In this document: in pieces, positions 1,101 through 20,605 of the stretch
How the letters are laid out: each line of letters opens with the position of its first letter
How positions within the stretch are numbered: the first letter of the stretch is position 1
From: Actinomycetota bacterium
GTDB lineage: Bacteria; Actinomycetota; Acidimicrobiia; Acidimicrobiales; JAJPHE01
DNA length: 59,576 nucleotides
Assembly: GCA_021325435.1 (NCBI GenBank)
Contig: JAJPHE010000042.1
Location: 1 to 59,576, forward strand
Direction: 5' to 3'
Notes under the pieces: generated by a model
The model's input: only the letters and a program-made list of their open reading frames with translations
Databases searched by the model: none
What the model was told of the DNA's origin: nothing
Program-made: the position numbers and the translations under genes

Positions 1101-3068
1101 TCAGACGGCCCGGGCGGCCATGGTGTCCCCGTCGAGCTTCTTGAGGACGCCGATCTGGCGGGCCCAGCCGTGGTCGATGTCGGCGTGGGTGTAGGCCCGC
1201 TGGCCGCCGACTCCGGCGAGGACGGCGGCCGCCAGCCAGTACGACAGGGCGTAGATGGTGACCGTCGGGTTGAACCCGCCTGAGGTCGGAAAGAGGCCGC
1301 CCCCGGCGTGGTACAGGTTGTCGAAGGCCCAGTACCGGCCGTAGGGGTCACACGGCCCCCCCGCCGGTTCGAGGGCCATGCGGTGGGTGCCCATGATGTG
1401 CTTGTCCTGGGGGATCTCGCTGAACGGCGTGGCCGAGGTGATCGGCGAGAGGCCGCTGTCCGCCGCCCCGGGCAGGACCGCCGGGGTGGTGGTGTTGATG
1501 GCGGCGGTGAACAGGGGACGCACGTCCGAATAGCGCGAGCCGGGCCCTCCGATGCTGTCGAGGAGCTCAAGAAGCTTGGGCGTGTAGTAGGCGGACGCCG
1601 CCAGCTCGTAGGGGTGGTTCTTGTAGGTGATGCGCGGCACCGGCTGGCCGTAGACGTCGACGATGTCGGGGTCGAGGTCCACGTAGTTGGTGAGCTGGGG
1701 CATGTCCTGGCCCTGCAGGGTGAATGCGGCCAGGTGGTTGCGGAACGGCCCTACGTGCATGAACGACTTGTGGCGCTCGCCCCAGAAGCCGAAGGACAGC
1801 TCGGTCGCCTCCTGGATGGGGTTGAGGTTGCCGCCCATCTCGAGGATTCCGCCCATCGGCACCGTCGGGTCGAACTGGGCGGGCGAGGGCCCCGACCCCA
1901 CGAAGGCGTCGAGGGTGTGGGTGCTGGTCCGGCCCCGGTAGGAGTGGACGTTCTTGTTGAGAATGGCCAGCGCCGTGGTCTGCAGGTGCAGCATCAGGTT
2001 GCGACCGAGCAGCCCGCTCGGCTCGGTGGGGCTGGTCTTCAGCGAGCTGAGGTTGCTCTCGTCCGGCCGGGGCGCGATCCCCGACAGGTAGCTGAGGCGG
2101 GTGGCTTCGATGGGAGTGTTGGCCAGCACCACCAGGTCGGCGGCCAGCGTCTGGGGTCGGCCGGAGGAGTCGATGTAGCGCACGCCCCGCGCCCGGTGCC
2201 GGCGCCCCGGTGAACGGGGCGGGTCCCAGAGCACCTCGATGACGTTGGCCTCGGAGATGAGCGTGGCCCCGGCGGCCAGGGCGTCGTTCAGCTGCCAGAT
2301 GCCCCCTGACTTGGCGTTGTTGGGGCAACCGAAGTCGAGGCAGAACCCGCAGTCCACACAGGGCGGCCGGCCCCGGTAGGGACGGGAGAGGACGGCCGTC
2401 GGCACGGGGGCCGGGTGGTAGCCCAGCCGTTGGGCGGCGTCGGCCAGCAGGAGGCTGTTCAGCTGGGGCACCCCGGGGGGGAGCGGGTACGGCGTGGACC
2501 GGGGCGACTCGTAGGGGTTGGGATTGACCACCCGACCGGAGCGGTCGCGGTGGGCCGGCCCCTGGATGCCGACCACCTCCTCGGTGACGGCGTAGAAGAT
2601 CTCGATGTGCCGGTAGGCCATCGGCCAGTCGGTGTAGGTCGTCCCCGGGATGGCCGGCCGGTTGGCCGGCGCCCCACTTCCCGCGTTCATCAGCTGGTTG
2701 GTGATGAAGTCGACCTCGCGCCAGCGCCGGGCCTTGACGTCGGCATGGGTGTAGGTGCCGCCGACCGTTACCGCCAGGTTGTCGACGTCGCCGACGAAGG
2801 TGCGGGGACCGGCCGACGGGTCGGTGCGGAAGGTGCGGGGCTCGAGGAGGGGGTCCTGGTCGAACGGCGCCACGGCATGGGACTCGTAGGCCACCTCGTC
2901 GTTGGCGAACACGTTGGTGACCTGGGCCGGGTCCCCCCCGAGGCCGACCCAGTAGTTGCGGCCCTTCTCGAGAACGATGACGTCGTAGGCGCCGCTCTTG
3001 GCCAGCAGCCGGGCCACGGTGGACCCGGCCGGGCCGCTGCCGACGATCACCGCCCGGGGCCTGCTCAC
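1101..3068 (-). CDS. GMC family oxidoreductase (gluconate 2-dehydrogenase large-subunit-like)
   Basis: FAD-dependent glucose-methanol-choline oxidoreductase of 655 residues. The N-terminal Rossmann motif GSGPAGSTVARLL lies at about residues 11-23 with the acidic ribose-binding VLEKG after it. A Cys-rich CVDCGFCLDFGCPNNAK segment sits mid-protein. The C-terminal GMC domain carries MGTHRMALEP and the GGFNPTVTIYAL segment, where the family's catalytic His/Asn pair lies. It probably oxidises a sugar, polyol or alcohol. The GTG start overlaps the stop of the upstream Tat-signal gene by 4 nt (GTGA), so the two are translationally coupled and likely form a complex, as in flavin-dependent gluconate/fructose-type dehydrogenases. 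No cytochrome c subunit is nearby, so the electron acceptor is unclear. Confidence 0.9.
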   Translation of the reverse strand: MSRPRAVIVGSGPAGSTVARLLAKSGAYDVIVLEKGRNYWVGLGGDPAQVTNVFANDEVAYESHAVAPFDQDPLLEPRTFRTDPSAGPRTFVGDVDNLAVTVGGTYTHADVKARRWREVDFITNQLMNAGSGAPANRPAIPGTTYTDWPMAYRHIEIFYAVTEEVVGIQGPAHRDRSGRVVNPNPYESPRSTPYPLPPGVPQLNSLLLADAAQRLGYHPAPVPTAVLSRPYRGRPPCVDCGFCLDFGCPNNAKSGGIWQLNDALAAGATLISEANVIEVLWDPPRSPGRRHRARGVRYIDSSGRPQTLAADLVVLANTPIEATRLSYLSGIAPRPDESNLSSLKTSPTEPSGLLGRNLMLHLQTTALAILNKNVHSYRGRTSTHTLDAFVGSGPSPAQFDPTVPMGGILEMGGNLNPIQEATELSFGFWGERHKSFMHVGPFRNHLAAFTLQGQDMPQLTNYVDLDPDIVDVYGQPVPRITYKNHPYELAASAYYTPKLLELLDSIGGPGSRYSDVRPLFTAAINTTTPAVLPGAADSGLSPITSATPFSEIPQDKHIMGTHRMALEPAGGPCDPYGRYWAFDNLYHAGGGLFPTSGGFNPTVTIYALSYWLAAAVLAGVGGQRAYTHADIDHGWARQIGVLKKLDGDTMAARAV

Positions 3069-4171
3069 GGTGCCACCCCAATCTGCTTGATGGCGCCGCG
3101 GGCCCGCAGGGCCTCGACCAGCGGAGCGACGTCGGTAGCTCCCAGGTCCGGGGTGGGCAGGCCGTTGTCGTCGAAGGTCGACACCGGGCGGTGCTCCACG
3201 TAGTAACCGCTCGGCTGGTACACGCCGGCTTGGCCGAACCCGGCGTTGGACATCTGCCCGGCCGGGGGAACGGTGAGGTGCTCGTCCCAGATGCTGCTGC
3301 CGAGCGGCTGGGTGTCACCTTCCCACCCGATGTCGTGCCACACCGGGTTCACGTGCTGGCCCCGGTACTCCGGGAGCCCGTAGGTGCCCTGGAACGTGTT
3401 GATCACGAGAGTGGGAAACAGGGCACGGGCCGCAGCGGGGGCCACCGGAAGCTGGCCCACGATCACGTTGCCGGCTGTTTCGATCATCAGGTCCTGCTGT
3501 TCGGTAGAGGCCTTGGCGAACGGAGTGGCGAACAGCGACTCCGAGTAGCTGTTGAAGGCGTCGAGGCCCTGGTCGTAGAGGGCCTGCAGGCCGCCGGGGC
3601 CAGGGGCCGGAATCAGCCCGTCCGCAACCTGCTTGGCCCAGACCCGAGAGACCCCCGGCGGCGCCGCCTTCAGGGCGTTGTCCGGCCCCTCGATGGCCGC
3701 CTGCCAGGACAGTTGTTGGAGCGGGTTGAGCGGCAAGTAGTGACCCTGAGACCCGGTGAGGAACGAGTCGGGCGGATAGGACGACGAAGCGGCACCGGTC
3801 TGGTAGTCGGGGTAGGCGTTGCGCCCGCTGAAGGGGCCGCGTAGGTAGATGGCGGGGTTGTCGGCCACCGCCGGGGGAAGTGAGAAAGCGCCCAGGAGGC
3901 GGTCGATGAAGACGTAGGCCAGGGCCTCGGCCGCGCCCGGCGAGGTAACTGTGCCCGGGGCCGACCGGTCGGTGGGGACGATCCGGGCGCAGAGGGCCTG
4001 AAGCGTCGCCAGCCGGGCGGATCCCGCCTTGAGGTAGTAGGTGGTGGGCGGCGCGCCGGCGCCCGAGGCGATGGCCTGGGCCGTTCTCAACAGGTCGAGG
4101 GGCAGGGCCACCGCCGCCCCAGTGCCGAGCGCGGCGGCGAGAAACCGCCGGCGCGAAAGCCTGCTGCTCAC
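3065..4171 (-). CDS. Tat-exported gluconate 2-dehydrogenase subunit 3 family protein
   Basis: A 368-residue protein with an N-terminal twin-arginine signal (SRRRFLAAALGTG followed by a hydrophobic run) and then a domain resembling gluconate 2-dehydrogenase subunit 3 (ARIVPTDRSAPG near the start, DRLLGAF later). In known systems this small subunit escorts the folded flavin subunit through Tat and helps stability. The GTG at 4171 is preferred because GGAGG lies 5 bases upstream; an in-frame GTG at 4195 would add eight residues. It overlaps the GMC gene by 4 nt, supporting export of a two-subunit complex. It is larger than the roughly 200-250 residues usual for subunit 3, with a C-terminal extension of unknown role. 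Confidence 0.8.
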   Translation of the reverse strand: MSSRLSRRRFLAAALGTGAAVALPLDLLRTAQAIASGAGAPPTTYYLKAGSARLATLQALCARIVPTDRSAPGTVTSPGAAEALAYVFIDRLLGAFSLPPAVADNPAIYLRGPFSGRNAYPDYQTGAASSSYPPDSFLTGSQGHYLPLNPLQQLSWQAAIEGPDNALKAAPPGVSRVWAKQVADGLIPAPGPGGLQALYDQGLDAFNSYSESLFATPFAKASTEQQDLMIETAGNVIVGQLPVAPAAARALFPTLVINTFQGTYGLPEYRGQHVNPVWHDIGWEGDTQPLGSSIWDEHLTVPPAGQMSNAGFGQAGVYQPSGYYVEHRPVSTFDDNGLPTPDLGATDVAPLVEALRARGAIKQIGVAP

Positions 4172-4228
4172 CACCACCTCCGCGTACCGAGCCACAGCAC
4201 CTTCGCTGCCGGACCACGAAAGTCCTGC

Positions 4229-4651: not shown

Positions 4652-7600
4652 GTGCCAACGATTACCGGGGCCTTCGCTGCCCGCCGCCGGCTGGCGGTCG
4701 GCGCTGCCGTCGCAGGCCTGTTGACCAGTTCAATCGCCGCCCAGGCGCTGCAAGGCCGGGGGGCGACACCTAGCGTGGCTCCTGCTCCGGGCATCGGTGG
4801 CCCGGCGGCCCCTGTCCCCTCCGGCAGCCCGAGTCGGGCGAGCTGTCCTCCGGTGCCCTCCAACCAGGGGGGTCCGGGTCAGGAGGCCCAGACGGCGACC
4901 GGCACGTTCCCCTGGCCGTCGCGGCCCCAGACGGTGGCCAATCCCGAGGACTACTCCGCCTACGACCACACCCCGCCGGCTGACCCCCCGGTCCGTCCGG
5001 CCAACTGGTCGAACGGGGGCGGCGACTGGAAGCTGACCAGCGCCCGCTCCACCGACCCCCGCGTCGACATGAACCCTCAGGAGCTCTGCGGGGTGGAGGG
5101 CAACAGCGTCGACGCGGCGTGGAAGGTCACGACCGGTCGGCCTGACACGGTGATCGCCGTGACCGACTCGGGCATCGAGTGGTGCGCCCCGGCGGTGGTG
5201 AACAAGATCTACCTGAACCGTCAGGCGTTGCCCTATCCCGAGAACAGCGCGGGGCTCACCAAGCCCCAGCTCGAGGCGGCCGGGGTCACCTTCGCCGACA
5301 GCGACCCCTACGACCTGAACAACAGCGGTGTCTTCAATGTCGCCCAGTACGCCAACGATCCGCGTATCTCCAGTCACTTCTGCGCCGGCAGCGGGTATGC
5401 CGGAGTGTCGCCCGAGGACCTGATCCGGGCTTTCGGGCAGCCGTCGTCGCCCTTCTACTACGGCCACTCCGGGCCGGCCGGGTTCACCGAGGCCATCGCC
5501 GGGTGGAACTTCGTGGACGACACCAACGACCCCTACGACGACGTGCACTACGACCACGGCACCGGGGAAGCGACCGACTCGACCGGAGCAGCCGACGCCC
5601 TGGGCCAGGAGGTCGGAACCTGCCCCAACTGCATGGTGCTGCCGATCCGCGTCGGGGACAGCTTCATCGCCACCGGCAGCGACTTCGCCCAGGGAGTCGC
5701 CTTCGCCGTCGACAGCGGCGCCAACGTGGTCCAGGAGGCACTGGGGACGCTCGACGAGACCACCAGCGCCCGCCAGGCCATCCAGTACGCCAACGCTCAC
5801 GGCGTGCCCGTCATCGCCAGCGCGGCCGACGAGGAGGCCGAGCACCACAACGAGCCGGCGAACCTGCCCGGGACCATCGTGGTCAACAGCATCACCAGGG
5901 CACCCGACGTCAACGGCAATTCGCTGTACAGCCCGCCCAGCTATCTCTACCTCAACGGCTGCACCAACTACGGGGCCAACATCTCGGTGAGCGTGGAGAG
6001 CGCCAGCTGCTCCTCGGAGGCGACCGGCAAGACGGGAGGGGTGGTTGGCCTGATCGAGTCGGCCGCCCGCGATCTGTACGACGCCGGCAAGCTTGCTGCC
6101 TATCCCAACACCAGTAGCGCCACCGGCCAGCCGGTGGTGCTGTCGGCCACCGAGGTCCGCGAGCTCATCACCATGGCGGCCGACGACGTCGACTTCCAGA
6201 CGGCCGCGCCCCCCTTCGGCCCCCCGGACAACTACGCGGTGGTTGCTCCGGTGCCGACCACCCGCTACCCGACCCAGCCCGGCTTCGACATGTACACCGG
6301 CTACGGGCGGCTCAACGCCGGCCGCATCCTCTCCATGCTCCAGCAGGGGCAGATCCCGCCCGAGGCGTCGTTCGGGTCCATGGACTGGTTCCAGACCTAC
6401 GACCCGACCTCGTCGACCATGCAGGTGCCGCTGTCGGCCGCGGCGGTGCGGACCAAGACGGGCCGGTTCACCTGGCATCTCCAGTACGGGATCGGCACCC
6501 AACCCGAGCCCGGCGCCTGGTACGACATCAAGTCCGGCGACCAGAAGAACCTGCCCCAGAGCGTGGCCTTGAAGCCGGACGACCTGGCCAAGATCGCCGC
6601 CCATTTGCCGCCCACCACCGACTCTTCCGGGGGAACAGGGCCCGGTGGGCGGCCCAACCCGGACGCCTTCGCCTTCACCCTCCGCCTGGTCGTGACGGAC
6701 GCCCACGGACTGGTGGGCATGGACCGCAGGACAGAGTTCCTGCACCACGACCAGACCCTGCTCACCGCGGCCAGCGACCAGAACGGTGACACGGCCCCGG
6801 GAGCGGTGGGCTTCCGGCCGGGGGGATCGGTGGACGCCCCGCCCACCCTGGCGCCCATCGCCACCGGAAAAAACGGAAAGGCGCTCAACGCCCTCATCGT
6901 CGCCACCGCCGACGGTGACATCCACGCCTACCAAGCGAATCCCGGGGGCGGCGGCGTCTCGTTGCAGGAGTTGAGCGGTTGGCCCGTCCACACCGCCGCC
7001 CTCGACAGCCACGCCGGCGAACCGGCGTACGCCACCGGGGCGGTGACGATCCCCCGTTCCAGCATCGTCGGGGGCGTCGCCGTCGGGGCCCTCGGCGGCC
7101 CGGGGACGGGCGTCGACGTCGTCGCCACCGACGTGACCGGCCACATCTACGCGTGGAACGGGGCGGGCACCCTGCTGTGGGAGGCGACGACCAACCCGGC
7201 CTACTCGGGACCGGCGGTGCGTGACCCGCACAACCGGGTGTTGAAGGGGATCATCGGGGCGCCGGCCCTGGCCCACCTGGAGAGCTCCAGCCAACTCGAC
7301 GTGGTCGTCTCGTCGATGGACCGTCACGTCTACGCCTTCCGCCCGGACGGAAGCCCCGTGCCCGGTTGGCCGGTGCTGGTGGTCGACCCCGCCCAGGTGA
7401 AGTCGGTCGATCCCACCACCCACAAGGTCACCTTCGCGGCGGGCTCCGCCGTGGAGCAGGGCACCAAGCTCCTCGACACTCCGGCCATCGGGGATCTCAA
7501 CGGCAACCTGGCCGGCCTGCAGGACGTGGTGGTGGGGAGCAACGAGGAGTACGGCGGCCAGCCCAACGTCAGCGTGGTGGACCCCATCAACTGGGCCGTC

Positions 7601-8680
7601 GGGCAGGCCCCGCTGCTCAACCCGGCCAACAGCCGGGTCTACGCCATCGACCCCCACGGCTCCAAGGCGGGCCAACCGAATCCGGGTGCGGCCCAGCCCG
7701 ACGCCAACGCGTTCCTACCCGGCTGGCCGGTCCCCATCGGCGACTTCGACGCCGGCTTGTTGCCCGACGTCGGTGACGGCACCAGCGCCAGCCCGACGCT
7801 GGCCGACCTCGGCAGCGACGGGCATCTCGAGACCGGCGCCATGACCACCGTCGGGCCGGGCTACGTGCTCAAGCCCGACGGCTCGTCCTACCTCGGAACC
7901 GGGCCGGACGGACGCCCTCGCGTCCTGTCCACCCAGCCGACTGGGCCGCTGTCCAACTCCCCCGAGTACCCCAGCCTGCCTTCCCTCGGCATGCCGGTGT
8001 TCGCGCCGCTCGGCGCCACCGCGCCCGGCATCAGCATGATCGCCCCCGCCACCAGCGTCGGCAAGGCCCTGGATGCGGCTCTTCCCGCCGAACAGCAGCC
8101 CAACGACAACCAGGTCGACGCCTGGAGCACGACGGGCCACTTCCAGGCCGCCTTCCCCCAAGTGATGAACGACCTCCAGTTCATCGTGCAGCCGATCGTC
8201 GCCAATGTCGGAGGTGACGGCGCCGGCCCCTATGTAGTCGAGGGCAGCGCCACCTACGACATCCGGGCGATCAACGCCTCGGGCCAGGAGGCCCCGAGCT
8301 TTCCCAAGTTCACCGGCGGCTGGATGGTGAACAGCCCCTCGTTCGGCCCCCTCGGCGACCTCGACCATCAGATCCTGGCCGCCGGTACCCGGGAGGGCAA
8401 CCTTTTGATCTGGGAGACGTCCACCTCGGCCTGCGCCGACAGCGGCCCGTGGCCCCGAGAGCACCACGATCTCTGGAACACCGGGAACCTCCAGACCACC
8501 GGCGGGGCGGCCCAGCCTGCCGGCCAACAGTGCGCCGGCGCGTCTACCGGGCCGCTGCCCGGGGGCGCCCTCCCCGGGCCGGGAGTGCCGGCCCTACCGC
8601 CGGCGCCACCCGCCTTGCCGTCGACGCCCCCGGGTTTCCTGTCCGGCGCCGTCCGCCAGCTCTCCGGGGGCCGACTGTGA
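4652..8680 (+). CDS. secreted S8-like subtilase with C-terminal FG-GAP-type beta-propeller
   Basis: A 1342-residue protein from a GTG at 4652, preceded by GGGAGA. The upstream reading-frame extension is antisense to the cupin gene and is rejected. The N-terminus has a basic-plus-hydrophobic signal peptide (AARRRLAVGAAVAGLLTSS). The subtilase triad can be placed: D172 in AVTDSG, H302 in YDHGTG and S455 in CSSEATGKTGG. The usual GTSMAAP around the Ser is altered to SEATGK, and the oxyanion Asn region reads SAADEEAEHHN, so it is a divergent member. From about residue 730 to 1260, repeats such as DVVVSSMDRHVYAF and DVVATDVTGHIYAW indicate an FG-GAP/VCBS-like propeller, followed by a Pro-rich tail. 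It overlaps the ceramidase-like gene by 4 nt, so the two are co-expressed. Confidence 0.85.
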   Translation: MPTITGAFAARRRLAVGAAVAGLLTSSIAAQALQGRGATPSVAPAPGIGGPAAPVPSGSPSRASCPPVPSNQGGPGQEAQTATGTFPWPSRPQTVANPEDYSAYDHTPPADPPVRPANWSNGGGDWKLTSARSTDPRVDMNPQELCGVEGNSVDAAWKVTTGRPDTVIAVTDSGIEWCAPAVVNKIYLNRQALPYPENSAGLTKPQLEAAGVTFADSDPYDLNNSGVFNVAQYANDPRISSHFCAGSGYAGVSPEDLIRAFGQPSSPFYYGHSGPAGFTEAIAGWNFVDDTNDPYDDVHYDHGTGEATDSTGAADALGQEVGTCPNCMVLPIRVGDSFIATGSDFAQGVAFAVDSGANVVQEALGTLDETTSARQAIQYANAHGVPVIASAADEEAEHHNEPANLPGTIVVNSITRAPDVNGNSLYSPPSYLYLNGCTNYGANISVSVESASCSSEATGKTGGVVGLIESAARDLYDAGKLAAYPNTSSATGQPVVLSATEVRELITMAADDVDFQTAAPPFGPPDNYAVVAPVPTTRYPTQPGFDMYTGYGRLNAGRILSMLQQGQIPPEASFGSMDWFQTYDPTSSTMQVPLSAAAVRTKTGRFTWHLQYGIGTQPEPGAWYDIKSGDQKNLPQSVALKPDDLAKIAAHLPPTTDSSGGTGPGGRPNPDAFAFTLRLVVTDAHGLVGMDRRTEFLHHDQTLLTAASDQNGDTAPGAVGFRPGGSVDAPPTLAPIATGKNGKALNALIVATADGDIHAYQANPGGGGVSLQELSGWPVHTAALDSHAGEPAYATGAVTIPRSSIVGGVAVGALGGPGTGVDVVATDVTGHIYAWNGAGTLLWEATTNPAYSGPAVRDPHNRVLKGIIGAPALAHLESSSQLDVVVSSMDRHVYAFRPDGSPVPGWPVLVVDPAQVKSVDPTTHKVTFAAGSAVEQGTKLLDTPAIGDLNGNLAGLQDVVVGSNEEYGGQPNVSVVDPINWAVGQAPLLNPANSRVYAIDPHGSKAGQPNPGAAQPDANAFLPGWPVPIGDFDAGLLPDVGDGTSASPTLADLGSDGHLETGAMTTVGPGYVLKPDGSSYLGTGPDGRPRVLSTQPTGPLSNSPEYPSLPSLGMPVFAPLGATAPGISMIAPATSVGKALDAALPAEQQPNDNQVDAWSTTGHFQAAFPQVMNDLQFIVQPIVANVGGDGAGPYVVEGSATYDIRAINASGQEAPSFPKFTGGWMVNSPSFGPLGDLDHQILAAGTREGNLLIWETSTSACADSGPWPREHHDLWNTGNLQTTGGAAQPAGQQCAGASTGPLPGGALPGPGVPALPPAPPALPSTPPGFLSGAVRQLSGGRL

Positions 8681-10932
8681 GACGGGCCGGGCGAACCCGC
8701 ATCACGACGACCGTCTCCGTCCTCGTCGGAGTCACTCTTCTGACGACCGGGCCGGCCATGGCCAGATCGGCGCTCACCCGCCCCGTCCCCGTCACCGCCA
8801 CCCTGACGGCCTCGGCGACCGCTGGGGTCGACGGGCTGATGGCGGGGGCGGCCACGGCCGACATCACCCCTCCGGCGTTCAGCCCCACCGAGGACGCGGC
8901 CGAGTTCGTGCCGGCCTGTGGTCCGTCGGAGCAGCAGATCGCCGCGGTGTGGACCGGAAAACGCCTCTTCGCCTTCGAGAAGCCCTACGTGGACCTGTAC
9001 GGGCTCGGTCGCTACGCGCCCGGCGACCCCTACTGCGACGCGGACCACTCAGGCCGCTACGAGGCGCCCTACCTGGCCGGCGGGTCGGGGCAGAATCGCT
9101 GGCCCCAGTCGGCGGATCCGGCCTCGCCCGTGCAAGCCGAGGCGGTCGTCCTGTCCGACGGCAACAGCCGGGTCGCCCTCGTGGTGGTGGATTCGATCGG
9201 GCTGTTCAACGTGACCATGGACCAGATCCGGGCCGAGGTCAGGGCGAAGGATCCGGCCATCGGCTCGGTCTTCGTGTCTTCCACCCACGACGAGTCCGCC
9301 CCTGATCCCATCGGTCTCTGGGGCCCCGACACCAGCGACCTTCCCGGCAATCCCGCCACCCCGGCAGCCGTGTCCTCCGGCGTGGACGAGGCGTACATGC
9401 GCTTCCTCACCGACCGGGTGGCCGGGGTGGTGGTGGCAGCCGACCACCTCCAGCCGGTCCAGCTCAGGGTGGCCATGGCCCGGCAGCCAGCCAACACCCA
9501 GAGCTGCTGGTCGTCGTATCCCTACATCGACGACCAGCTGATGCCGGTCCTGCAGGCCGCCAACCCGACGACAGGCCAGGTGGTCTTCACCTTGGTGAAC
9601 GCCAGCACCCACGTCGAGAGCTTGGCCTTCTCGGGGGTGAAGAAGTACACGTCGATGCTGAGCGGGGACTGGCCAGCCCGGATGCGGGCCCACCTCGAGG
9701 CGCAGTGGCCGGGCAGCACCGCCGTCGAGCTCACCGGGCTGGTGGGCAGCGTCGAGACGCCGACGGTCTACGAGCCGGAGTCGACTCAGGTGCAGAACGT
9801 GCCGGGGGCATTCCACTCGGTAGCCGGCAACCCCGACGGCTGCTCCAGCGTCTACCCCCAGCCGTCGGGCGCCACGCCGGTGACCGACGCCTATGCCTTC
9901 CTCGACGCCTACGGCAAGAGCGTGGCCGACACTGCTGTCGCCGCCCTGTCCGGAGCTCAGGTGGTGCCGGGCAGCACCCGGATCAGGGCCGAGCACCAGT
10001 CGCTGTGCGTGCAGCTCGAGAACAACCTGTTCGCCGCGGCCTTCGCCGCCGGCCTCTTCCCTGACCGCCCCGCCTTCGCCGACCCCGGTTGCACGGTCGG
10101 CGTGAGCACCGCCGGCAGGACGGCCGCCCCCAACGGGGCATCGGCCACCACCCCTCAGCCGGCCACACCGGCGTATCTGCGCACCGACGTCGCCGCCGTG
10201 AGCGTCGGGCCGGTGAGCATCGCCTACTCCCCCGGCGAGGTCTTCCCGTTCACCGAGACCCGAGGGGCACTGGACAACGCCCAGATGCCGTTTCCGACCG
10301 ACTGCTACGACCCGGCGACGGACGACTACTACTGCGGCAACCCGCTTCCCATGACGCCGTGGATCTCGGCCGACATGCCTGGCAGCTACCGCCTCATGGC
10401 CGGCCTCGGCGAGGACATGATCGGCTACCTGTTCCCGCCGGGGAACTTCGTCGGCACCCAAGGTGAGACCGACGAGACCCCGTGGTCCACCTACGAGGAG
10501 AGCAAGGGCGGCAACGACCGGTTCGGCAACGGCCACGCCGATGACGCCGAGTCGATCGGGCCCCACGCCGGCTTGGCCGTCACCCAGGCCCTGGCCGGGT
10601 TGCTCACCAAGCTGGGCGGCCCCCGCCCCACCGTGACGCCCGGGCTGTTCGTGGACAGCGCCCAGCGCATGTCGGACAGCCCCTTCCCATCCTCCTCCTT
10701 CTCGGGGGCGGTGGGGGTGGTGGCCCGCGGCTCCAACGGTGCCTGGCAGACGTACCTGGTGGGCCAGGGGCACACCTCGGGCTGGGCCACCTACGACGGC
10801 ACCACGGATCCGGGCACGGCGGGTACCGCCTACCCGTACTCGGTCGCCACCGCCGGGGTCATGGTGAACGGTTCGCCGCTGCTCATCGACGTCTTCACCG
10901 GCGCCCACGACCTGGGCGTGAAAGGAGCATGA
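8677..10932 (+). CDS. secreted neutral/alkaline ceramidase-like protein
   Basis: A 751-residue protein from a GTG overlapping the preceding TGA (GTGA), with a Sec-type signal at residues 1-30. Residues 56-66 (AGAATADITPP) match the characteristic N-terminal motif of neutral ceramidase family proteins, and FVSSTHDESAPD (H204) occupies the place of the family's THTHSGP zinc segment, followed by GLWGP. Family members are secreted zinc amidases acting on N-acyl lipids. Here the second His and Gly of the motif are changed to Glu and Ala, so ceramidase activity is not assured. A non-lipid amide or ester substrate is possible. The next gene overlaps by 4 nt. Confidence 0.75.
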   Translation: MRRAGRTRITTTVSVLVGVTLLTTGPAMARSALTRPVPVTATLTASATAGVDGLMAGAATADITPPAFSPTEDAAEFVPACGPSEQQIAAVWTGKRLFAFEKPYVDLYGLGRYAPGDPYCDADHSGRYEAPYLAGGSGQNRWPQSADPASPVQAEAVVLSDGNSRVALVVVDSIGLFNVTMDQIRAEVRAKDPAIGSVFVSSTHDESAPDPIGLWGPDTSDLPGNPATPAAVSSGVDEAYMRFLTDRVAGVVVAADHLQPVQLRVAMARQPANTQSCWSSYPYIDDQLMPVLQAANPTTGQVVFTLVNASTHVESLAFSGVKKYTSMLSGDWPARMRAHLEAQWPGSTAVELTGLVGSVETPTVYEPESTQVQNVPGAFHSVAGNPDGCSSVYPQPSGATPVTDAYAFLDAYGKSVADTAVAALSGAQVVPGSTRIRAEHQSLCVQLENNLFAAAFAAGLFPDRPAFADPGCTVGVSTAGRTAAPNGASATTPQPATPAYLRTDVAAVSVGPVSIAYSPGEVFPFTETRGALDNAQMPFPTDCYDPATDDYYCGNPLPMTPWISADMPGSYRLMAGLGEDMIGYLFPPGNFVGTQGETDETPWSTYEESKGGNDRFGNGHADDAESIGPHAGLAVTQALAGLLTKLGGPRPTVTPGLFVDSAQRMSDSPFPSSSFSGAVGVVARGSNGAWQTYLVGQGHTSGWATYDGTTDPGTAGTAYPYSVATAGVMVNGSPLLIDVFTGAHDLGVKGA

Positions 10933-13598
10933 CCGTGCGCACCCGGCGTCTCATGACCGCGGTCACCGCCGGCCTGGCCATCGTCGCCGGGTCGGGCTGG
11001 ACGGTGGCGTCCTCGGCGGCCAGCCAGGCGAACCAGGCCGGGCTCGCCGGCGACCCGGTCCGCAGCACCGAACCGGTGGTCCTGACCGGCTCTCAGTTCC
11101 CCGACTGGTCCGCCGGGCCGGAGCTCACCGCCCGGGCGCCCGAGCCGCCGACCGACTACTCGGTCTATGACGACCAGGGGATGATGCCCAAGCCCCTGCA
11201 GAGCGACTGCTACCAGTCGAACCCACCGGCGGACGTGAACGGCTGGACGGACCCGTCCCACGGGGACCACAACTGCTACCAGTCCTCCCAGCTTCCGGTG
11301 CGGACCCTCGCCCACGGCGTCGACCCCGCCAGCCTGCGCGGCTACCGGTGGAACGCCAAGGCCGGCAAGTTCGTCCAGATCCCCTTCCAGGTCGACACCA
11401 AGTGGACCCACTACATCTCCAACAACGCGTCCGGGTTCGCCTTCTACTCAGGCATCGACCAGGAGGTCACCTACACCTTCGACCGCGAAGGCTTCCGGTA
11501 CACGACCAACGCGCCGTTCGACCCGTCCAATCCCGCCGGCGTCTGCCAGGCCCTGCCCGTCGGCGGGATCAAGGCGGCGCCCGACCCGAACCCGGGCCTC
11601 ACCAACACCGACGAGATGGCGTTCATGGCCCGTGACGCAGGCGGGCAGGCCCCCGCCGGCACCGCCCTCCCCAAGGGGATCCTCGACGCCCACCAGGTCG
11701 CGATCGTCGACCCGCTCACCGGCAACACCGGCTACGTGTACGTCATGCGCTCGGCGCCCAATCCGCCCGGCGACCCCGACGGCCCGTACCAGGTGCCCAT
11801 GGCGTACACGGCGGCGAACTCCCCGTATGTCCGCTACGCCAGGGACCCCAACGCCGACACCTTCGTCTACTCGCAGAGCTCGTACTCCGACTACGGCAAC
11901 GCCCCCAAAGGCCCGGTCTGCACGCCGGACGGACAGCCGGTCATCGGTCAGGGGTTCAAGATCGACCCCGCCACCAACAGCGTCGTCCTCGACCCCTCTA
12001 CTTACGTCCAGCGCCGACCCCTCGATACGGCGACGGTGACCACCCCGCGGTACCGGTTCCGTTTCGACGGGCGATGGCTGATGGACTCCCTGCAGGTGTC
12101 CCCGGACGACCAGGGCATGGCCAAGGGTGACTACGGTCCCAGCATCATCGACCGGTTCAAGGGCCGGGCCTTTCAGCAGACCCCGGGCGGGAACACCCCC
12201 TGCTGCGGCTACGAGGACGAGCAGAACAACTGGGGGGGCTCCTCCCAACTGATGGGCGAGAAGGTCGGCCCGGTACGGGCCATCCGGGTCACATGGGGAG
12301 CCGACTCGGGGACCAACGTCGTGCGCACTGACATCTTCTACGCCGACCAGATCGACCACGACTACGAGCTGCGCGTCCATCCGATCCCGCCGCTGGACGG
12401 CATCTACACCCAGTGGGACATGGCCGCAGGCCAGGTCACCAAGTACTACAACCCCTACAACCCGAACGGCGTGCCCGTCCTCGGCATCAACCCGGAGACC
12501 TACGGCAACGTCCACGCCTACGTCGGCCCCTCGGGCGTCTCCTACGACAGCGCCGACAAGGTCGGCCAGGCCGTCCGCCAGGCCAACGGGGGCAACCCCG
12601 TGTCCGTGGGGAACCCGTCGCCCTCCAACTGTGGCTCCACCTGCATCGACGGCAACTTCGACGTGCCCGACGTGACCTTCTCCGGGCTCGCTTCCGAGGC
12701 GCTGTCGTGGGACGAGTTCACCGGCCCCAGCGGCACCATGGTCGAGAAATGGGGCGTCCACCAGGTGAGCCCGGTCGGCACCGCCGCCGCCGCGGCGGCC
12801 GCCGTCCCCTACTACCGCGACGACGCCTGCTTCGACGACGGAACCGGCGCCGACCCCGGACCCCATCTGGCCCTGCGCAGCGCCGACGAGCCCCGCTACT
12901 GGTGGTACTCGAACAACGACCCGTCGACGGGAGTGCCCACCAGCGGGTCCAATCCCCCCGCCGGCTACCAGCTGTACCCGCGCCGCTGCTGGAACCACAA
13001 CGCCGACGGGTCGCCCTACAACATCCCCGGCACCGCCTCCTACGACCCCAACAAGCCGGCCCAGCAGTCGGACCCGCCGCCCGATCCTTCGTTCTCGCCG
13101 CAGGGCGACGTGCGCTACTTCCAGGGTGACATCGGGACCCACGGTCTTCACATCGAGTTCATCGCCGACGCCGACAACGCCCAGGCCACCGTCCCCGTCG
13201 ACGAGATCGACTCGGACCAGCACCAAGTGGTGCTGCCCCCCGCTCAGGGCAACGTCGGCCAGGCCTACGCCAACGGAATCCAGGTGCCGGTCGAGACCCT
13301 GGTGACGGCGTGGTCGGCGCCGGCCGCGGCCCAGAGCCTGGCTGGCGGCGCCGGAGTGGCCGCCCCGCTGGCCCGCTCACTGGCCCCGGCCGGTTCCGCC
13401 TCGTCAGTGGCGGACGCCGCCCGGGCGCCGGCGCACACGGGACGGAGTCCGTCGGCCACCCGCAGGGCGATCCTGGTAGGCGCAGTGGTGATGCAAGGGG
13501 CGGTGCTGGCGGCGGCCACCAGGTGGGGCCCTTCGGCCTGGGCACTGGCCGGGGGCCCCGCCGGCTGGTTGCGGAGGCGACGCCGGCGGGGCCGCTGA
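10929..13598 (+). CDS. secreted, C-terminally anchored protein of unknown function
   Basis: An 889-residue protein whose family I do not recognise. It has a signal peptide (TRRLMTAVTAGLAIVAGSGW), a long Asn/Tyr/Asp-rich extracellular part with several Cys-containing segments (NTPCCGYED, NCGSTCIDGNF), and a Gly/Ala-rich linker. It ends in one hydrophobic segment (about residues 847-863) followed by the very basic tail RRRRRRGR. This architecture implies export with a C-terminal membrane anchor and a cytoplasmic Arg tail. The ATG overlaps the ceramidase-like stop (ATGA), so the three genes from 4652 form one operon. It may display or scaffold the two upstream hydrolases; this is inference from context only. 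Confidence 0.8.
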   Translation: MTVRTRRLMTAVTAGLAIVAGSGWTVASSAASQANQAGLAGDPVRSTEPVVLTGSQFPDWSAGPELTARAPEPPTDYSVYDDQGMMPKPLQSDCYQSNPPADVNGWTDPSHGDHNCYQSSQLPVRTLAHGVDPASLRGYRWNAKAGKFVQIPFQVDTKWTHYISNNASGFAFYSGIDQEVTYTFDREGFRYTTNAPFDPSNPAGVCQALPVGGIKAAPDPNPGLTNTDEMAFMARDAGGQAPAGTALPKGILDAHQVAIVDPLTGNTGYVYVMRSAPNPPGDPDGPYQVPMAYTAANSPYVRYARDPNADTFVYSQSSYSDYGNAPKGPVCTPDGQPVIGQGFKIDPATNSVVLDPSTYVQRRPLDTATVTTPRYRFRFDGRWLMDSLQVSPDDQGMAKGDYGPSIIDRFKGRAFQQTPGGNTPCCGYEDEQNNWGGSSQLMGEKVGPVRAIRVTWGADSGTNVVRTDIFYADQIDHDYELRVHPIPPLDGIYTQWDMAAGQVTKYYNPYNPNGVPVLGINPETYGNVHAYVGPSGVSYDSADKVGQAVRQANGGNPVSVGNPSPSNCGSTCIDGNFDVPDVTFSGLASEALSWDEFTGPSGTMVEKWGVHQVSPVGTAAAAAAAVPYYRDDACFDDGTGADPGPHLALRSADEPRYWWYSNNDPSTGVPTSGSNPPAGYQLYPRRCWNHNADGSPYNIPGTASYDPNKPAQQSDPPPDPSFSPQGDVRYFQGDIGTHGLHIEFIADADNAQATVPVDEIDSDQHQVVLPPAQGNVGQAYANGIQVPVETLVTAWSAPAAAQSLAGGAGVAAPLARSLAPAGSASSVADAARAPAHTGRSPSATRRAILVGAVVMQGAVLAAATRWGPSAWALAGGPAGWLRRRRRRGR

Positions 13599-16374: not shown

Positions 16375-18078
16375 TTAGCCGCTCACCGCCTGGAAGGACC
16401 ACACCCCGTTAACTCCGGGCACCGACTGGCCGCCCTCGTAGATGCCGGTGCCGAGGTAGATGGAGGACCCAACCACGGCAGTCCCTGAGGCGACGGCCGC
16501 GCCCAGGGGGAACGACCACAACGGCGTGCCCGTGTCCGCGTCGTAGGCGACGATCGAGAAACCGGTGGTGGACGGGGCGAACACCACTCCGCCTCCGGCC
16601 GGCCCTCCGACATAGGACACGGCGGCGTAGCTCGGCAGCGAGATCGGCGCCTGCCAGAGAACCTTTCCGGTCGACGCGTCCACGGCGTGGAGCGAGGCGG
16701 CCCGCAACGGGTCACAGGCTGAGGTTCCTGCCGTCGAAGTGCCCGAGGTGGTGTCCACGCACGCCAGGCTGGTGTCGACACTCGGTATGCCGGCTCCGGT
16801 GAAGGGTGCCGGAATGGCGGTCGCCCCGAACCACGCCGGCGAGGCGGCTGCGGTGGGGGGTGCCGCGCTACCGAGGGCGGCGCCCCCGATGAAGCCGCCG
16901 ATGGCTCCCGGCCCCGATCCGAGCTCGCCGGGCTGGGCGGCCTGGATGCCCCAGATCTTGGTGCCGGTGCTCTCGGCCACGGCATAGACGTAGCCCGACT
17001 TGCTGCCTTCGATGACCGCATGAGTGCCAGCCACGCTGGTGATTATGGGCGAGGATCCGAAGTCAGTGTCTCCGCCGTCGGGGTACTGGCTGCCGGTGTA
17101 CAGGTTGCCCGGCTCCTGGAACCTCCAGGCCGGCTCACCGTTGTTGGCGTAGACGGCGGTGATTCCCTCCACCGTGGTGCCCGTCGCGGGGCTGGGAGGA
17201 CAGTTGCCGGTGGCGAACACGACCAAGCCTTGCCCGCCCGTGCCGGAGAAGGCCGGGTCCACCGCCGGCGATGTCCACACATCGCCACAGCCGTCGGTGA
17301 GCCGGGTGGACGCCAGGGAGTCGACCGTCTGCTGGCCGGTCGGCATCTCGGGCTCGAACTTCCAGAGAAGGGCTCCGGACCGGGCGTTGAACGCCTGCAC
17401 CCCAGGTGGCCCTGACGCCGGGGAGTTGCCCTCGTTCGAGTCACTTCCGACGATCACCTCGGGCACCCCGCCGATCGTGGCTACGACCGGGGAGGACTCG
17501 ACCTCCATGGCGCTGGTCGGGTGAGAAGGGTCGAGATCCTGAGCCCACAGGCACGCCCCGGTTGCGGCGTCGGCCGCGTACAGGGTGCCGCCGCCGCCGA
17601 AGAACACCACCGGATCGACGTCATGTCCGATCCCCGAGACGGCAGCGGTGGAGGTGAAGGGCCCGTAGGACACGGCGTGGTGATCCGGTCCGATCGTGTT
17701 CCCATGGCATACGTGGCTGGCGTTGATGCTGAATGACCACACGGTCGACCCGCTGGCCTGATCAAAGGCGTTGAACGTCCCACTGTCGTCCCCGACGAAC
17801 ACCTTCCCGTCAGCCACGGTCGGCGTGGCGGTCACCGGTCCCGCCGTCGGCGTGAACCAGGCCGGGTGCAGTGTCGCCGCGTTCTGCGGCGTGATGTTGG
17901 TGTCGCAGGCGGCGCCGGTCCGCGAAATGTTCTGCTGGTACATGGGCCATGAGCAGCCCGAGTCGGCCTTGGCGCCACTGATGGCGAGGGGGCTGGCCAG
18001 ACCACCGACCACGAGGGCGGAGACGGCCGCCCACCGGACCCGGCGGCCCGGATGGCGGGCGTTGAAAGTTCCCCTCAC
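16375..18078 (-). CDS. secreted PQQ-binding-like beta-propeller protein
   Basis: A 567-residue exported propeller. The N-terminus has a signal (RRVRWAAVSALVVGGLASPL) followed by the entry segment typical of PQQ-like repeats (WPMYQQNISRTG, then LHPAWF). Repeats such as GKVFVGDDSGTFNAFD, GGTLYAADAATGACLW, GYVYAVAESTGTKIWG and LHAVDASTGKVLW define several blades. Such proteins are either quinoprotein dehydrogenases or BamB-like non-enzymatic scaffolds; I see no clear catalytic Asp/Cys-Cys signature, so a structural role is equally likely. The GTG at 18078 follows the upstream gene's stop by 8 bases. A longer reading frame up to 18531 lies out of frame inside that upstream gene and is rejected. 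Confidence 0.85.
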   Translation of the reverse strand: MRGTFNARHPGRRVRWAAVSALVVGGLASPLAISGAKADSGCSWPMYQQNISRTGAACDTNITPQNAATLHPAWFTPTAGPVTATPTVADGKVFVGDDSGTFNAFDQASGSTVWSFSINASHVCHGNTIGPDHHAVSYGPFTSTAAVSGIGHDVDPVVFFGGGGTLYAADAATGACLWAQDLDPSHPTSAMEVESSPVVATIGGVPEVIVGSDSNEGNSPASGPPGVQAFNARSGALLWKFEPEMPTGQQTVDSLASTRLTDGCGDVWTSPAVDPAFSGTGGQGLVVFATGNCPPSPATGTTVEGITAVYANNGEPAWRFQEPGNLYTGSQYPDGGDTDFGSSPIITSVAGTHAVIEGSKSGYVYAVAESTGTKIWGIQAAQPGELGSGPGAIGGFIGGAALGSAAPPTAAASPAWFGATAIPAPFTGAGIPSVDTSLACVDTTSGTSTAGTSACDPLRAASLHAVDASTGKVLWQAPISLPSYAAVSYVGGPAGGGVVFAPSTTGFSIVAYDADTGTPLWSFPLGAAVASGTAVVGSSIYLGTGIYEGGQSVPGVNGVWSFQAVSG

Positions 18079-18086
18079 CGCTCGCC

Positions 18087-19391
18087 TTAGCAGCCGGTGT
18101 TGACCGCGAGGACCTGATGGTCCTGGGCGTTGTAACCGGGCAGGTTGCTGGTGAGGGGCGAGAGCGGGTCGGTGGCCTGGGAGAGGAAGCCGGGGTTGAC
18201 GCTCACCCCGCAGGTGCCGGCGTAGATGCCGGGCGTGGGCCAAGGGGCGGCCGGAGACCGCTGCGGGTCCGGGTCGGCATAGGTCTGCACCCCGGGCTCG
18301 GCGTTCACGTTCTGAGCCGTGCCCTGCCGGTAGGCGTCCATGCCGCCCGGGTTGGAGCTGCCGTCGGCGTTCGTGTAGCACGCCTGCTGGCTGTTGTAGT
18401 CGCCGCTGTTGCAGTTCGGGGACTCGGAGTTGACGCTCGGGTTGTTGCTGTAGTCGTAGACGTTCTTGTTCTTCGGGGCGGTCGATGTGCACTTGTCCTG
18501 AGAGGCCTGCTCCCCGGTGTTGGCGTTGCACCCGTGGTACACCGTCTGCTGCTGAGTGGTCGCCTCACCGCAGATCCCGTCGGCGCACATTCCCGCGGAC
18601 AGGTTGGCCAGCCCTTCAGGGTTGGTAAGGCTGCCGATCTGGGCCGCCTCCTGTGGCGTGATGCTGAGGAGGACACCGCCGCCGTCGGACGGGCCGTTCA
18701 CCGCACCGGAGGTGTTCTGCTTGCCGTTGATTCCGTCGTGCTCGCCGGCGTCGTTGTTGTCATCCATGTTGAAGGCGACGACCAGGCCGTTGGTGGGGTC
18801 GATGGCGATGGTGTCACCGGTGTTGGGAGTGACGGTGGTCTTGCCGTAGCTCTGGTCCTCGCACGGGTTCTGCAGCAAGGCAGCGATCGGGCAGTAGAAC
18901 TCGTAGTAGTCGAAGTTGACCACCCCGCCGGCGCCCTGCTTGTTGCCGTTGCCGCAGCCCTGTCCACCGGGGCCTCCGCCCGTGCCGGCGGTGTTCACGG
19001 CTACGCAGCCGGCATGGGGAGACGCCTTGTAACCGGGCAACCCGACGTTGAGGACGAATCCCACAGTCTGGGTGTTGGGATCGATCGGCTGCTGGTTCAT
19101 GCCGACCTCGGCGATGCGGGTGTTGTTGGGGTTGGCGTTGCCCTGGGTCGTGCCGCCGTTCTCAACAAGTAAGGACATGTCGTGGCAACCAGGTTCCTGA
19201 CCGGGCTGGATGGTGGGGTCGGAGGAGCCGTAGTTGCCGTTCCAGGCCTCCGCCGTCGGCTGGCAGTCCTGGTTCGACGGCTGGTAGCCGCCGCCGCTGG
19301 TCGCGGCAGCGACGCCGGCGAGGCCAAGCGACACCGCCACAGCAACCCCTCCGCTGAGCGCGGCTGCAGCGAACTTGCGACCGATCTTCAT
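18087..19391 (-). CDS. Cys-rich secreted protein of unknown function
   Basis: A 434-residue exported protein whose family I do not recognise. The signal peptide is MKIGRKFAAAALSGG plus a hydrophobic stretch ending in VAAATSGG. The mature part has 14 cysteines, an even number suggesting disulfides, is rich in Asn, Gln, Gly and Thr, and ends with a Cys as its last residue. Segments such as VGFVLNVGLPGYKAS and GLVVAFNMDDNNDAGEHDG may be beta strands with an acidic, possibly Ca-binding loop. The ATG at 19391 is preceded by GAGGGTGGA. It is the first gene of an operon with the propeller protein and may be its partner outside the cell. Confidence 0.78.
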   Translation of the reverse strand: MKIGRKFAAAALSGGVAVAVSLGLAGVAAATSGGGYQPSNQDCQPTAEAWNGNYGSSDPTIQPGQEPGCHDMSLLVENGGTTQGNANPNNTRIAEVGMNQQPIDPNTQTVGFVLNVGLPGYKASPHAGCVAVNTAGTGGGPGGQGCGNGNKQGAGGVVNFDYYEFYCPIAALLQNPCEDQSYGKTTVTPNTGDTIAIDPTNGLVVAFNMDDNNDAGEHDGINGKQNTSGAVNGPSDGGGVLLSITPQEAAQIGSLTNPEGLANLSAGMCADGICGEATTQQQTVYHGCNANTGEQASQDKCTSTAPKNKNVYDYSNNPSVNSESPNCNSGDYNSQQACYTNADGSSNPGGMDAYRQGTAQNVNAEPGVQTYADPDPQRSPAAPWPTPGIYAGTCGVSVNPGFLSQATDPLSPLTSNLPGYNAQDHQVLAVNTGC

Positions 19392-19449
19392 TCCACCCTC
19401 GCTGTCCCCAGAAGGGCCGCCCCGAACCCGGTCGGCCGCCAATGGGCAA

Positions 19450-19479
19450 ATTGTACAGATCTGACGAAATATGTTCCAA
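19450..19479 (-). promoter_or_regulatory. putative sigma70-type promoter for the Cys-rich protein operon
   Basis: On the minus strand, TTGGAA and TACAAT are separated by 18 bases in an AT-rich island that stands out from the surrounding GC-rich sequence. The predicted transcript would begin about 50 bases before the ATG at 19391. Confidence 0.4.
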
Positions 19480-19567
19480 GGGGCGCTCGGCCCTGCACAG
19501 TTATTCGCTTCCAATCTGCTGATTCCTGCGCCGGTTCCCCCGGCTGCGGGCGGTACCGTCCGGTTGG

Positions 19568-20605
19568 ATGGAGTCGCTTGCCCCGGCCGACGCCCTGGAC
19601 CTGGTGGGCGGTGGCTTGGATCCGGAGGCGCTGGGGACGCTGGCTGGACGGCCGGTAATCGTCGTGTCGGTCGATGACACGCCGGCGACGGCCCGGTGCG
19701 CCCAGCTTCTGGTTCGGATCCCCTGCGTGACGATCGGGGTGGACTTCCCCGGCTCCGTCCCCCTGTCGGCGGAGGGCTTCGACATCCTTCTGACGACCAG
19801 ACCTGAGCCTCCGGCCCCGTGGCTCGGATCCGGCCCGCAGGCAATGCTGGCGGACCTCGAACTCGCAGTCAGCCGCTCCCCCGAAGCGTCGGTCGCTCTC
19901 GTGCAGCTGCTTCGCCTCGGGACGGCCCTCGACACGGGCTCTGCTCTCGTCGCCGAGTCACTCGCCTATGGCCTTCTTCAGAGCGGGTCGGGATTCGGGC
20001 GCTGGCTCGCCGAGCGGACGGCGCCGGCAAGACCAGCCGAGGACCACGGCCCTGCGGTCCTGGCCGACCGCTCCGGCGCCACCCTGAGACTGACCCTCAA
20101 CCGCCCGTCGGTCCACAACGCCTACTCGGCGGCGATGCGGGACGCCCTCGTCGAAGGGCTGGCCCTGGCCGCCGCTGACCTCACGATCAAATCGGTCGAG
20201 CTGTCCGGCGCCGGCCCCAGCTTCTGCAGCGGCGGGGACCTGACCGAGTTCGGCGCCACCCCCGACCCGGTCACCGGGCACCTGGTCCGCTCGACCCGCC
20301 ACCCGGCCTGGTGGCTGGCCGAACTGGGGCCCAAGACGAGCGCTTTCGTCCACGGCAGCTGCGTCGGCGCCGGAGTGGAGCTCCCCGCCTTCGCCGGCCG
20401 GGTGGTGGCTCACCCCGACACGACCTTCCGGCTGCCCGAGGTGGAGATGGGCCTGATCCCCGGGGCGGGTGGCACGGCGAGCCTGCCCCGTCGCATCGGC
20501 CGCCACCGCACGGCCTACCTGGCCCTCACCGGAAAGGCCATCGACGCGGCCACCGCCCTGTCCTGGGGACTGGTGGACGAGATCGGCTCGGGGTCGCCGG
20601 ACTGA
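19568..20605 (+). CDS. enoyl-CoA hydratase/isomerase family protein with N-terminal extension
   Basis: A 345-residue crotonase-superfamily protein. The crotonase core occupies roughly the last 195 residues: LRLTLNRPSVHNAYSAAM, the oxyanion-hole segments FCSGGDLTEFG and GSCVGAGVEL, and the catalytic-region PEVEMGLIPGAGGTASLPR. The first 150 residues are an extension ending in SLAYGLLQSGSGFGRWL; I suspect a degenerate crotonase or partner domain but cannot prove it. It likely hydrates or isomerises an acyl-CoA. It starts the plus-strand run enoyl hydratase, SDR, VOC protein, and is divergent from the Cys-rich protein operon. Confidence 0.82.
   Translation: MESLAPADALDLVGGGLDPEALGTLAGRPVIVVSVDDTPATARCAQLLVRIPCVTIGVDFPGSVPLSAEGFDILLTTRPEPPAPWLGSGPQAMLADLELAVSRSPEASVALVQLLRLGTALDTGSALVAESLAYGLLQSGSGFGRWLAERTAPARPAEDHGPAVLADRSGATLRLTLNRPSVHNAYSAAMRDALVEGLALAAADLTIKSVELSGAGPSFCSGGDLTEFGATPDPVTGHLVRSTRHPAWWLAELGPKTSAFVHGSCVGAGVELPAFAGRVVAHPDTTFRLPEVEMGLIPGAGGTASLPRRIGRHRTAYLALTGKAIDAATALSWGLVDEIGSGSPD

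What the first reader, a model, noticed from the sequence alone, without database searches (positions are those of the whole stretch)
4652..13598. Three-gene coupled secretion operon: divergent subtilase-propeller, ceramidase-like protein and an anchored unknown
All three genes have signal peptides and 4-nt overlaps at both junctions. The first has an S8 triad and a propeller tail, the second a neutral-ceramidase fold, the third an unknown 889-residue ectodomain with a C-terminal hydrophobic segment and an Arg-rich tail. Together they look like a cell-surface complex for breaking down a lipid- or protein-linked substrate. I know of no named system with this order.
Basis: partly seen in the sequence, partly recalled or inferred. 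Interest (0 to 1): 0.58.

Follow-up and report, generated by a model that had tools for sequence, protein, structure and literature searches.

The report
Secreted protease–amidase operon with unknown partner
A soil bacterium makes, from three tightly linked genes, an exported protease, an exported enzyme shaped like the lipid-cutting neutral ceramidases, and an exported protein of an unrecognised family; the first two travel together in several other bacteria, the third only sometimes, so this looks like a variant of a secreted digestive operon rather than a new kind of machine.

Summary
Three collinear exported genes (4652-8680, 8677-10932, 10929-13598) are coupled by GTGA and ATGA overlaps. 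Gene 1 is an S8 subtilase whose triad is kept, except that an invariant Asp stands where the oxyanion Asn belongs; relatives carry FG-GAP propeller repeats. Gene 2 matches no Pfam model, but its predicted core matches neutral ceramidases far above everything else (Foldseek E 2.5e-11, next unrelated 0.08; VIA Z 23.0 and 22.3, next 8.1), and all four zinc-ligand equivalents are invariant in 18 of 18 relatives. Gene 3 belongs to an uncharacterised family.

The genes 1-2 pair is conserved: intact and same order in the window and four other loci, 4-nt overlap in the window and two of those. The full triad recurs in one other genome. In other pairs the third slot holds an esterase or a second subtilase. 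Most gene-1 and gene-3 relatives stand alone, and gene 3's membrane tail is unique to the window.

So the "three-gene coupled secretion operon" is confirmed, while "cell-surface complex" is not. Best reading: an exported hydrolase operon pairing a protease with a zinc amidase that removes N-acyl groups from peptides or amide lipids, with an exchangeable third gene. Substrate untested.

The parts
4652..8680 (+). Gene 1: exported S8 subtilase, 1342 aa, with probable FG-GAP-type propeller tail
   Evidence: Shine-Dalgarno-like GGGAG shortly before GTG 4652
5144..6187 (+). Peptidase_S8 domain (residues 165-512)
   Evidence: PF00082, 59.2 bits, cut-off 21.8
5165..5167 (+). Catalytic Asp equivalent D172
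   Evidence: 14 of 15 family members have D, one E; aligned to AK.1 protease
5555..5557 (+). Catalytic His equivalent H302
   Evidence: 15 of 15
5828..5830 (+). D393 at the place of the oxyanion-hole Asn
   Evidence: D in 15 of 15; aligned to the N of AAGN in AK.1 protease
6014..6016 (+). Catalytic Ser equivalent S455
   Evidence: 15 of 15
6869..8491 (+). Repeat tail (residues about 740-1280), probable beta-propeller
   Evidence: repeats read; FG-GAP_3 in 8 of 15 family members, not in this member
8677..8680 (+). GTGA overlap, gene 1 stop and gene 2 start
   Evidence: same GTGA in G365 and in G537 (gene 2 degraded there), ATGA in FK3.bin72
8677..10932 (+). Gene 2: exported protein with neutral-ceramidase fold, 751 aa
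9286..9288 (+). Zn-ligand equivalent H204 (motif THDES)
   Evidence: 18 of 18; aligned with THTH of 2zws via relatives
9610..9612 (+). Zn-ligand equivalent H312
   Evidence: 18 of 18
10237..10239 (+). Zn-ligand equivalent E521 (motif PGE)
   Evidence: 18 of 18; mapped by the PGE motif shared with human enzyme, MAFFT misplaced it
10426..10428 (+). Zn-ligand equivalent Y584 (motif GY)
   Evidence: 18 of 18
10929..10932 (+). ATGA overlap, gene 2 stop and gene 3 start (alternative start GTG 10935)
   Evidence: CTGA at the same place in G560
10929..13598 (+). Gene 3: exported protein of an uncharacterised family, 889 aa
   Evidence: no Pfam/NCBIfam match, no convincing PDB match
13455..13595 (+). 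C-terminal hydrophobic segment and Arg-rich tail of gene 3, found in this member only
   Evidence: 1 of 34 family members

Best explanation
A translationally coupled operon for extracellular hydrolysis. Shown by sequence and model: three products with export signals; a subtilase with intact triad; a zinc-site protein with the neutral-ceramidase fold; a third protein of an unrecognised family; conserved coupling of genes 1 and 2. Inferred: the subtilase cuts peptide or lipopeptide material outside the cell, the ceramidase-fold protein hydrolyses N-acyl (amide) bonds of acylated peptides or amide lipids through its zinc, and the released fatty acids and peptides are taken up. The third gene is an accessory position that can be filled by different exported proteins. 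In the window it is a protein that may have gained a membrane tail.
For: Overlapping genes. S8 domain and triad. Ceramidase fold: Foldseek 2zws E 2.5e-11, human 4wgk 4.1e-11, first unrelated 0.08; VIA Z 23.0 and 22.3 against 8.1. PF04734 reached by 5 of 18 family members. H204, H312, E521 and Y584 invariant in 18 of 18. Pair intact and in the same order in the window, G560, G365, FK3.bin72 (same contig place as G321) and, with a distant gene 1, Solirubrobacterales RYN_243. In the 397-genome order sample, all 4 genomes with an intact close gene 2 have a close gene 1, which is found in 22 of 397 (hypergeometric 7e-6; 1e-4 without the own genome), and in all 4 the two are adjacent. Exchangeable third slot: esterase PF00756 E 3.9e-38 with ATGA overlap in G365; second S8-like gene (28% to gene 1) after the FK3.bin72 pair.
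Against: No substrate evidence at all; the fatty-acid reading leans on the fold and on unscanned neighbours. The second His of the THTH motif of known ceramidases is Glu in 17 of 18 family members, so chemistry or substrate may differ. Most relatives stand alone: none of 42 loci fetched around the first hits held two of the three genes, and 0 of 16 further close gene-1 loci held gene 2 or 3. On the gene-1 tree the pairing label is not clustered (5 changes, 500 of 500 shuffles as low), so pairing was gained or lost repeatedly. The gene 2 model has mean pLDDT 44.3, so only its core was compared with confidence. The gene 1 model failed.
Confidence: 0.42

Rival explanations
1. A co-expression operon only: unrelated exported hydrolases share a transcript because they are needed at the same time, without a common substrate.
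For: Each gene is mostly found alone. Gene 3 relatives couple to other genes: TTGA overlap with a Tat-signal gene in G009. The third slot is variable. The pairing label is not clustered on the gene-1 tree.
Against: The gene 1 - gene 2 pair recurs with the same order, and in the window, G365, FK3.bin72 and (degraded gene 2) G537 with the same 4-nt junction; in the order sample close gene 2 never occurs intact without an adjacent close gene 1.
Confidence: 0.33
2. The subtilase is the maturation protease of its operon partners: it cleaves propeptides of genes 2 and 3 after export.
For: Coupled synthesis with an S8 protease; weak matches of gene 1 to dedicated processing proteases (PatA family 4.6e-6, QhpE 3.8e-6, both far below their cut-offs). 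Gene 2 has a variable N-terminal stretch before the fold.
Against: Many gene 2 and gene 3 relatives have no gene 1 beside them, and most gene 1 relatives have neither. No conserved cleavage site was sought.
Confidence: 0.13
3. A contact or lytic system against other microbes whose surfaces carry sphingolipids or acyl-amides, rather than scavenging.
For: Known ceramidases attack sphingolipids; a P. aeruginosa ceramidase enhances phospholipase C haemolysis (start of the abstract of PMC5150637, seen in the listings). Gene 3 in the window may be membrane anchored.
Against: No delivery system seen; simple signal-peptide export; anchor unique to the window; second His of the ceramidase motif replaced.
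Confidence: 0.07

Closest known systems
Neutral ceramidase (PF04734; P. aeruginosa 2zws/2zxc, human 4wgk)
   Same: Core fold; equivalents of the four zinc ligands (ligand identity recalled); export signal
   Different: Not recognised by PF04734; second His of THTH is Glu; 13-18% identity in the fold alignments; substrate unknown; coupled to a subtilase
S8 subtilases (AK.1 protease 1dbi, thermitase 1thm)
   Same: Domain above Pfam cut-off, D/H/S triad
   Different: Asp instead of the oxyanion Asn in 15 of 15 family members; long repeat tail
T9SS-dependent M6-like inactivated metalloprotease (NF052323)
   Same: Gene 1 tail residues 1151-1268 match at 6.5e-8, presumably the shared propeller-type repeat
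   Different: 31 bits against a cut-off of 600; not the same protein
Putative esterase PF00756 (third gene in G365)
   Same: Occupies the third position of the same coupled operon
   Different: Unrelated in sequence to gene 3

Membership tests
Peptidase S8 (subtilases) | Profile match above the curated cut-off | tested here: met
   59.2 bits against 21.8
Peptidase S8 (subtilases) | Asp-His-Ser catalytic triad | tested here: met
   D172 14/15, H302 15/15, S455 15/15; alignment to 1dbi
Peptidase S8 (subtilases) | Oxyanion-hole Asn (present in most, not all, known active members; recalled) | tested here: not met
   Asp in 15 of 15. Not a strict requirement: PC2 is recalled to have Asp there, so this does not exclude an active S8
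Neutral ceramidase superfamily | Neutral-ceramidase core fold | tested here: met
   confident core only
Neutral ceramidase superfamily | Four zinc ligands (His, His, Glu, Tyr; recalled) | tested here: met
   18 of 18 in H204, H312, E521, Y584; mapping; E521 mapped by motif
PF04734 as modelled | Score above the family cut-off | tested here: not met
   No hit for gene 2 at E 1; 5 of 18 relatives match at E 0.1. Gene 2 is therefore filed with the fold superfamily, not as a ceramidase
Ceramidase (enzyme) | Hydrolysis of ceramide | not testable with these tools
   needs assay
Ceramidase (enzyme) | C-terminal Ig-like domain (recalled) | tested here: inconclusive
   Residues 575-751 have pLDDT under 50
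FG-GAP/beta-propeller | Profile match in the tail of gene 1 | tested here: inconclusive
   8 of 15 family members match FG-GAP_3, gene 1 itself does not; model failed
Any described family for gene 3 | Profile match of gene 3 or its relatives | tested here: not met
   Among 34 members each hit occurs in one member only, 0.015 or weaker; no PDB match of the family profile or consensus; the consensus matched K319L-like PKD over 31 residues at 4.3e-5, below its cut-off

The most novel reading that the evidence does not exclude
An undescribed exported de-acylation module: an Asp-oxyanion subtilase with a propeller and a zinc amidase of a separate clade of the neutral-ceramidase fold jointly break down acylated peptides or amide lipids, and gene 3 founds a new family of exported enzymes that work on the same material.
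Probability: 0.2. Interest if true: 0.62.

Novelty: new variant of a known kind. Interest (0 to 1): 0.42.

Why it matters
It adds a clade of the neutral-ceramidase fold that current profiles miss, coupled to a protease, and points to a widespread uncharacterised exported family (gene 3 type found in 31 of 397 order genomes and 20 of 296 class genomes). If the amidase reading is right, it would show how these bacteria obtain fatty acids from acylated peptides or amide lipids. The invariant Asp at the oxyanion position of a large bacterial subtilase family is testable on its own.

Tried and rejected
Rejected: that the operon is unique to the window. My first sample suggested it (0 of 42 loci with two genes), but the wider search of the order and of named genomes found pairs and one triad. 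Rejected: that gene 3's tail defines the family (1 of 34). Rejected: G358 as clear support. Its gene 2 fragment (45 residues) lies upstream of gene 1, the other order. The 6-of-6 figure includes it and G537's degraded copy, so I quote only the intact 4 of 4.

Led nowhere: structure of gene 1 (pLDDT 33.9, not searched further); profile of gene 2 family against PDB sequences; gene 3 in viral contigs; a consensus of the gene-3 family against Pfam and PDB. No structure was predicted for gene 3: its relatives come from sources the predictor does not accept, and I judged a single-sequence model unlikely to be useful. Absence of a family from the VIA list is not taken as evidence. The five paper searches found no description of this operon; searches for the ceramidase ligand numbers and for Asp oxyanion holes gave nothing useful, and two ceramidase structure papers are not held, so ligand numbers are recalled and checked only against the 2zws sequence shown.

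Full report
What is there. Three genes on the + strand follow each other with no gap. Gene 1 (4652-8680, 1342 aa) ends in TGA, which overlaps the GTG of gene 2 (8677-10932, 751 aa), and the stop of gene 2 overlaps the ATG of gene 3 (10929-13598, 889 aa). Start codon choice matters for the second junction: a better spaced in-frame GTG lies at 10935. All three begin with a basic stretch and a hydrophobic stretch as in export signals; I used hydropathy and inspection only.

Gene 1. The S8 domain scores 59.2 bits against a cut-off of 21.8 and aligns with AK.1 protease and thermitase. In 15 aligned family members the triad His and Ser are invariant and the Asp is kept in 14. At the place of the oxyanion-hole Asn all 15 have Asp. 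The tail carries repeats of a propeller type; 8 of 15 family members match FG-GAP_3 and 5 of 15 FG-GAP, though this member does not. The structure job on residues 130-1280 gave pLDDT 33.9 and is not used.

Gene 2. No profile matches it convincingly, but 5 of 18 family members reach PF04734 at E 0.1, best 1.5e-6. A model from 7 sequences has low mean pLDDT (44.3) with a confident core. That core finds four neutral-ceramidase chains at E 2.5e-11 to 1.3e-10 and then nothing below 0.08. VIA-align gives Z 23.0 (293 residues, 3.5 A) and 22.3 (278 residues, 3.2 A) to the human and Pseudomonas enzymes, and 8.1 to the next entry. A PF04734 protein from genome G007 aligns to 2zws through the THTH motif (H97/H99 as counted in the printed alignment), H204, E411 and Y448. 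Through it and L062 these correspond to H204, H312, E521 and Y584 of gene 2, each invariant in 18 of 18 family members; E521 was placed by its PGE motif because the multiple alignment misplaced that stretch. The second His of THTH is Glu in 17 of 18. The zinc-ligand roles are recalled. So the fold and the zinc site are supported, and the substrate is open.

Gene 3. It matches no Pfam or NCBIfam family and no PDB sequence convincingly (best PDB E 0.041). Relatives exist in 31 of 397 sampled genomes of the order and 20 of 296 of the class. A core of about 480 residues is shared by 34 aligned members, with invariant or nearly invariant residues including Q154, D156, D228, E229, R450, R453, R482, H484, D631 and D749. 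Some relatives look like lipoproteins by eye. None of the other 33 has the hydrophobic tail, so anchoring is a feature of the window protein alone.

Conservation of the neighbourhood. The first sample found no linked copies: 0 of 42 loci held two of the three genes. Wider searches changed this. Of 15 further loci (with for part of what was cut), seven hold more than one: L125 (G560) has all three in order; L123 (G365), L121 and its duplicate L124 (FK3.bin72/G321), and L119 (RYN_243) have genes 1 and 2 adjacent; L120 has a distant gene 1 about 4 kb away on the other strand; L129 (G537) has gene 1 followed by a degraded gene 2. Junctions: GTGA in G365 and G537, ATGA in FK3.bin72, 7 nt gap in G560, 63 nt gap in RYN_243; gene 2 to gene 3 in G560 is CTGA. 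Thus the window and four other loci have an intact pair, two of those four with a 4-nt overlap. In the 397-genome sample the four genomes with an intact close gene 2 (own genome included) all have it next to a close gene 1. Conversely, 0 of the 16 further loci with a close gene 1 that I fetched contain gene 2 or gene 3. Of 16 genomes with the long gene-3 subfamily, 3 have gene 1 and gene 2, 2 of them linked. On a gene-1 tree the window, G365, G537, G560 and G502 form a fully supported clade in which G502 lacks the partner; FK3.bin72 and RYN_243 branch elsewhere, and the pairing label is not clustered beyond chance. Repeated gain and repeated loss both fit.

The third position. In G365 it is an esterase (PF00756, E 3.9e-38) with an ATGA overlap, while the gene 3 relative of that genome (69%) lies on another contig. 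In FK3.bin72 a second subtilase-like gene follows (its fetched piece has no Pfam hit at 0.001). Gene 3 relatives can also be coupled to other exported genes, as in G009. This fits an operon of exported hydrolases with an exchangeable third gene better than a fixed complex.

Mechanism. My reading is that the subtilase and the zinc amidase act outside the cell on acylated peptides or amide lipids, and products are taken up. Shown: export signals by inspection, S8 triad, zinc-site conservation, fold, coupling. Inferred: activity, substrate, cooperation, role of gene 3. The main rival, co-expression without a common substrate, is nearly as likely.

Known or new. No paper found by five searches (listings seen, and passages of one review, PMC6952831) describes such an operon; the library lacks most subscription papers. 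I rate it a new variant of a known kind.

Noticed in passing
G000:C21:39817-40413 (own genome, locus L206): The same genome has a second member of the ceramidase family that does pass PF04734 (47.6 bits) with a THTH motif in its reading frame, so gene 2 is not its only protein of this fold.
   Followed up: no
L017:6277-7581 and 7578-9758 (G009): A gene-3 relative overlaps by TTGA a gene with a Tat signal match (9.7e-4, below cut-off) whose sequence holds a DFHVHTTYSHD stretch resembling PHP metallohydrolases (recalled, no Pfam hit).
   Followed up: partly
L120:7566-9770: Between a distant gene 1 and gene 2 in MAG AC_42 lies a tannase-like DUF6351 protein (PF19878, 5.4e-214), another possible exported-hydrolase type beside gene 2.
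   Followed up: partly
L129:7472-7909 (G537): Gene 2 downstream of a well kept gene 1 is decaying: only residues 42-149 and 646-747 are recognisable, with an internal stop.
   Followed up: partly
L125 (G560), gene-3 relative: The only start at the -4 position is CTG (CTGA overlap); the gene also contains a run of N in the held sequence.
   Followed up: partly
window 1101-4195: Divergent upstream pair of overlapping genes that look by eye like a GMC-type oxidoreductase and a Tat-exported small subunit; not scanned.
   Followed up: no
window 16375-19844: Two further long reading frames with repeat or Asn/Gly-rich sequence and export-signal-like stretches downstream of the operon; not scanned.
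   Followed up: no
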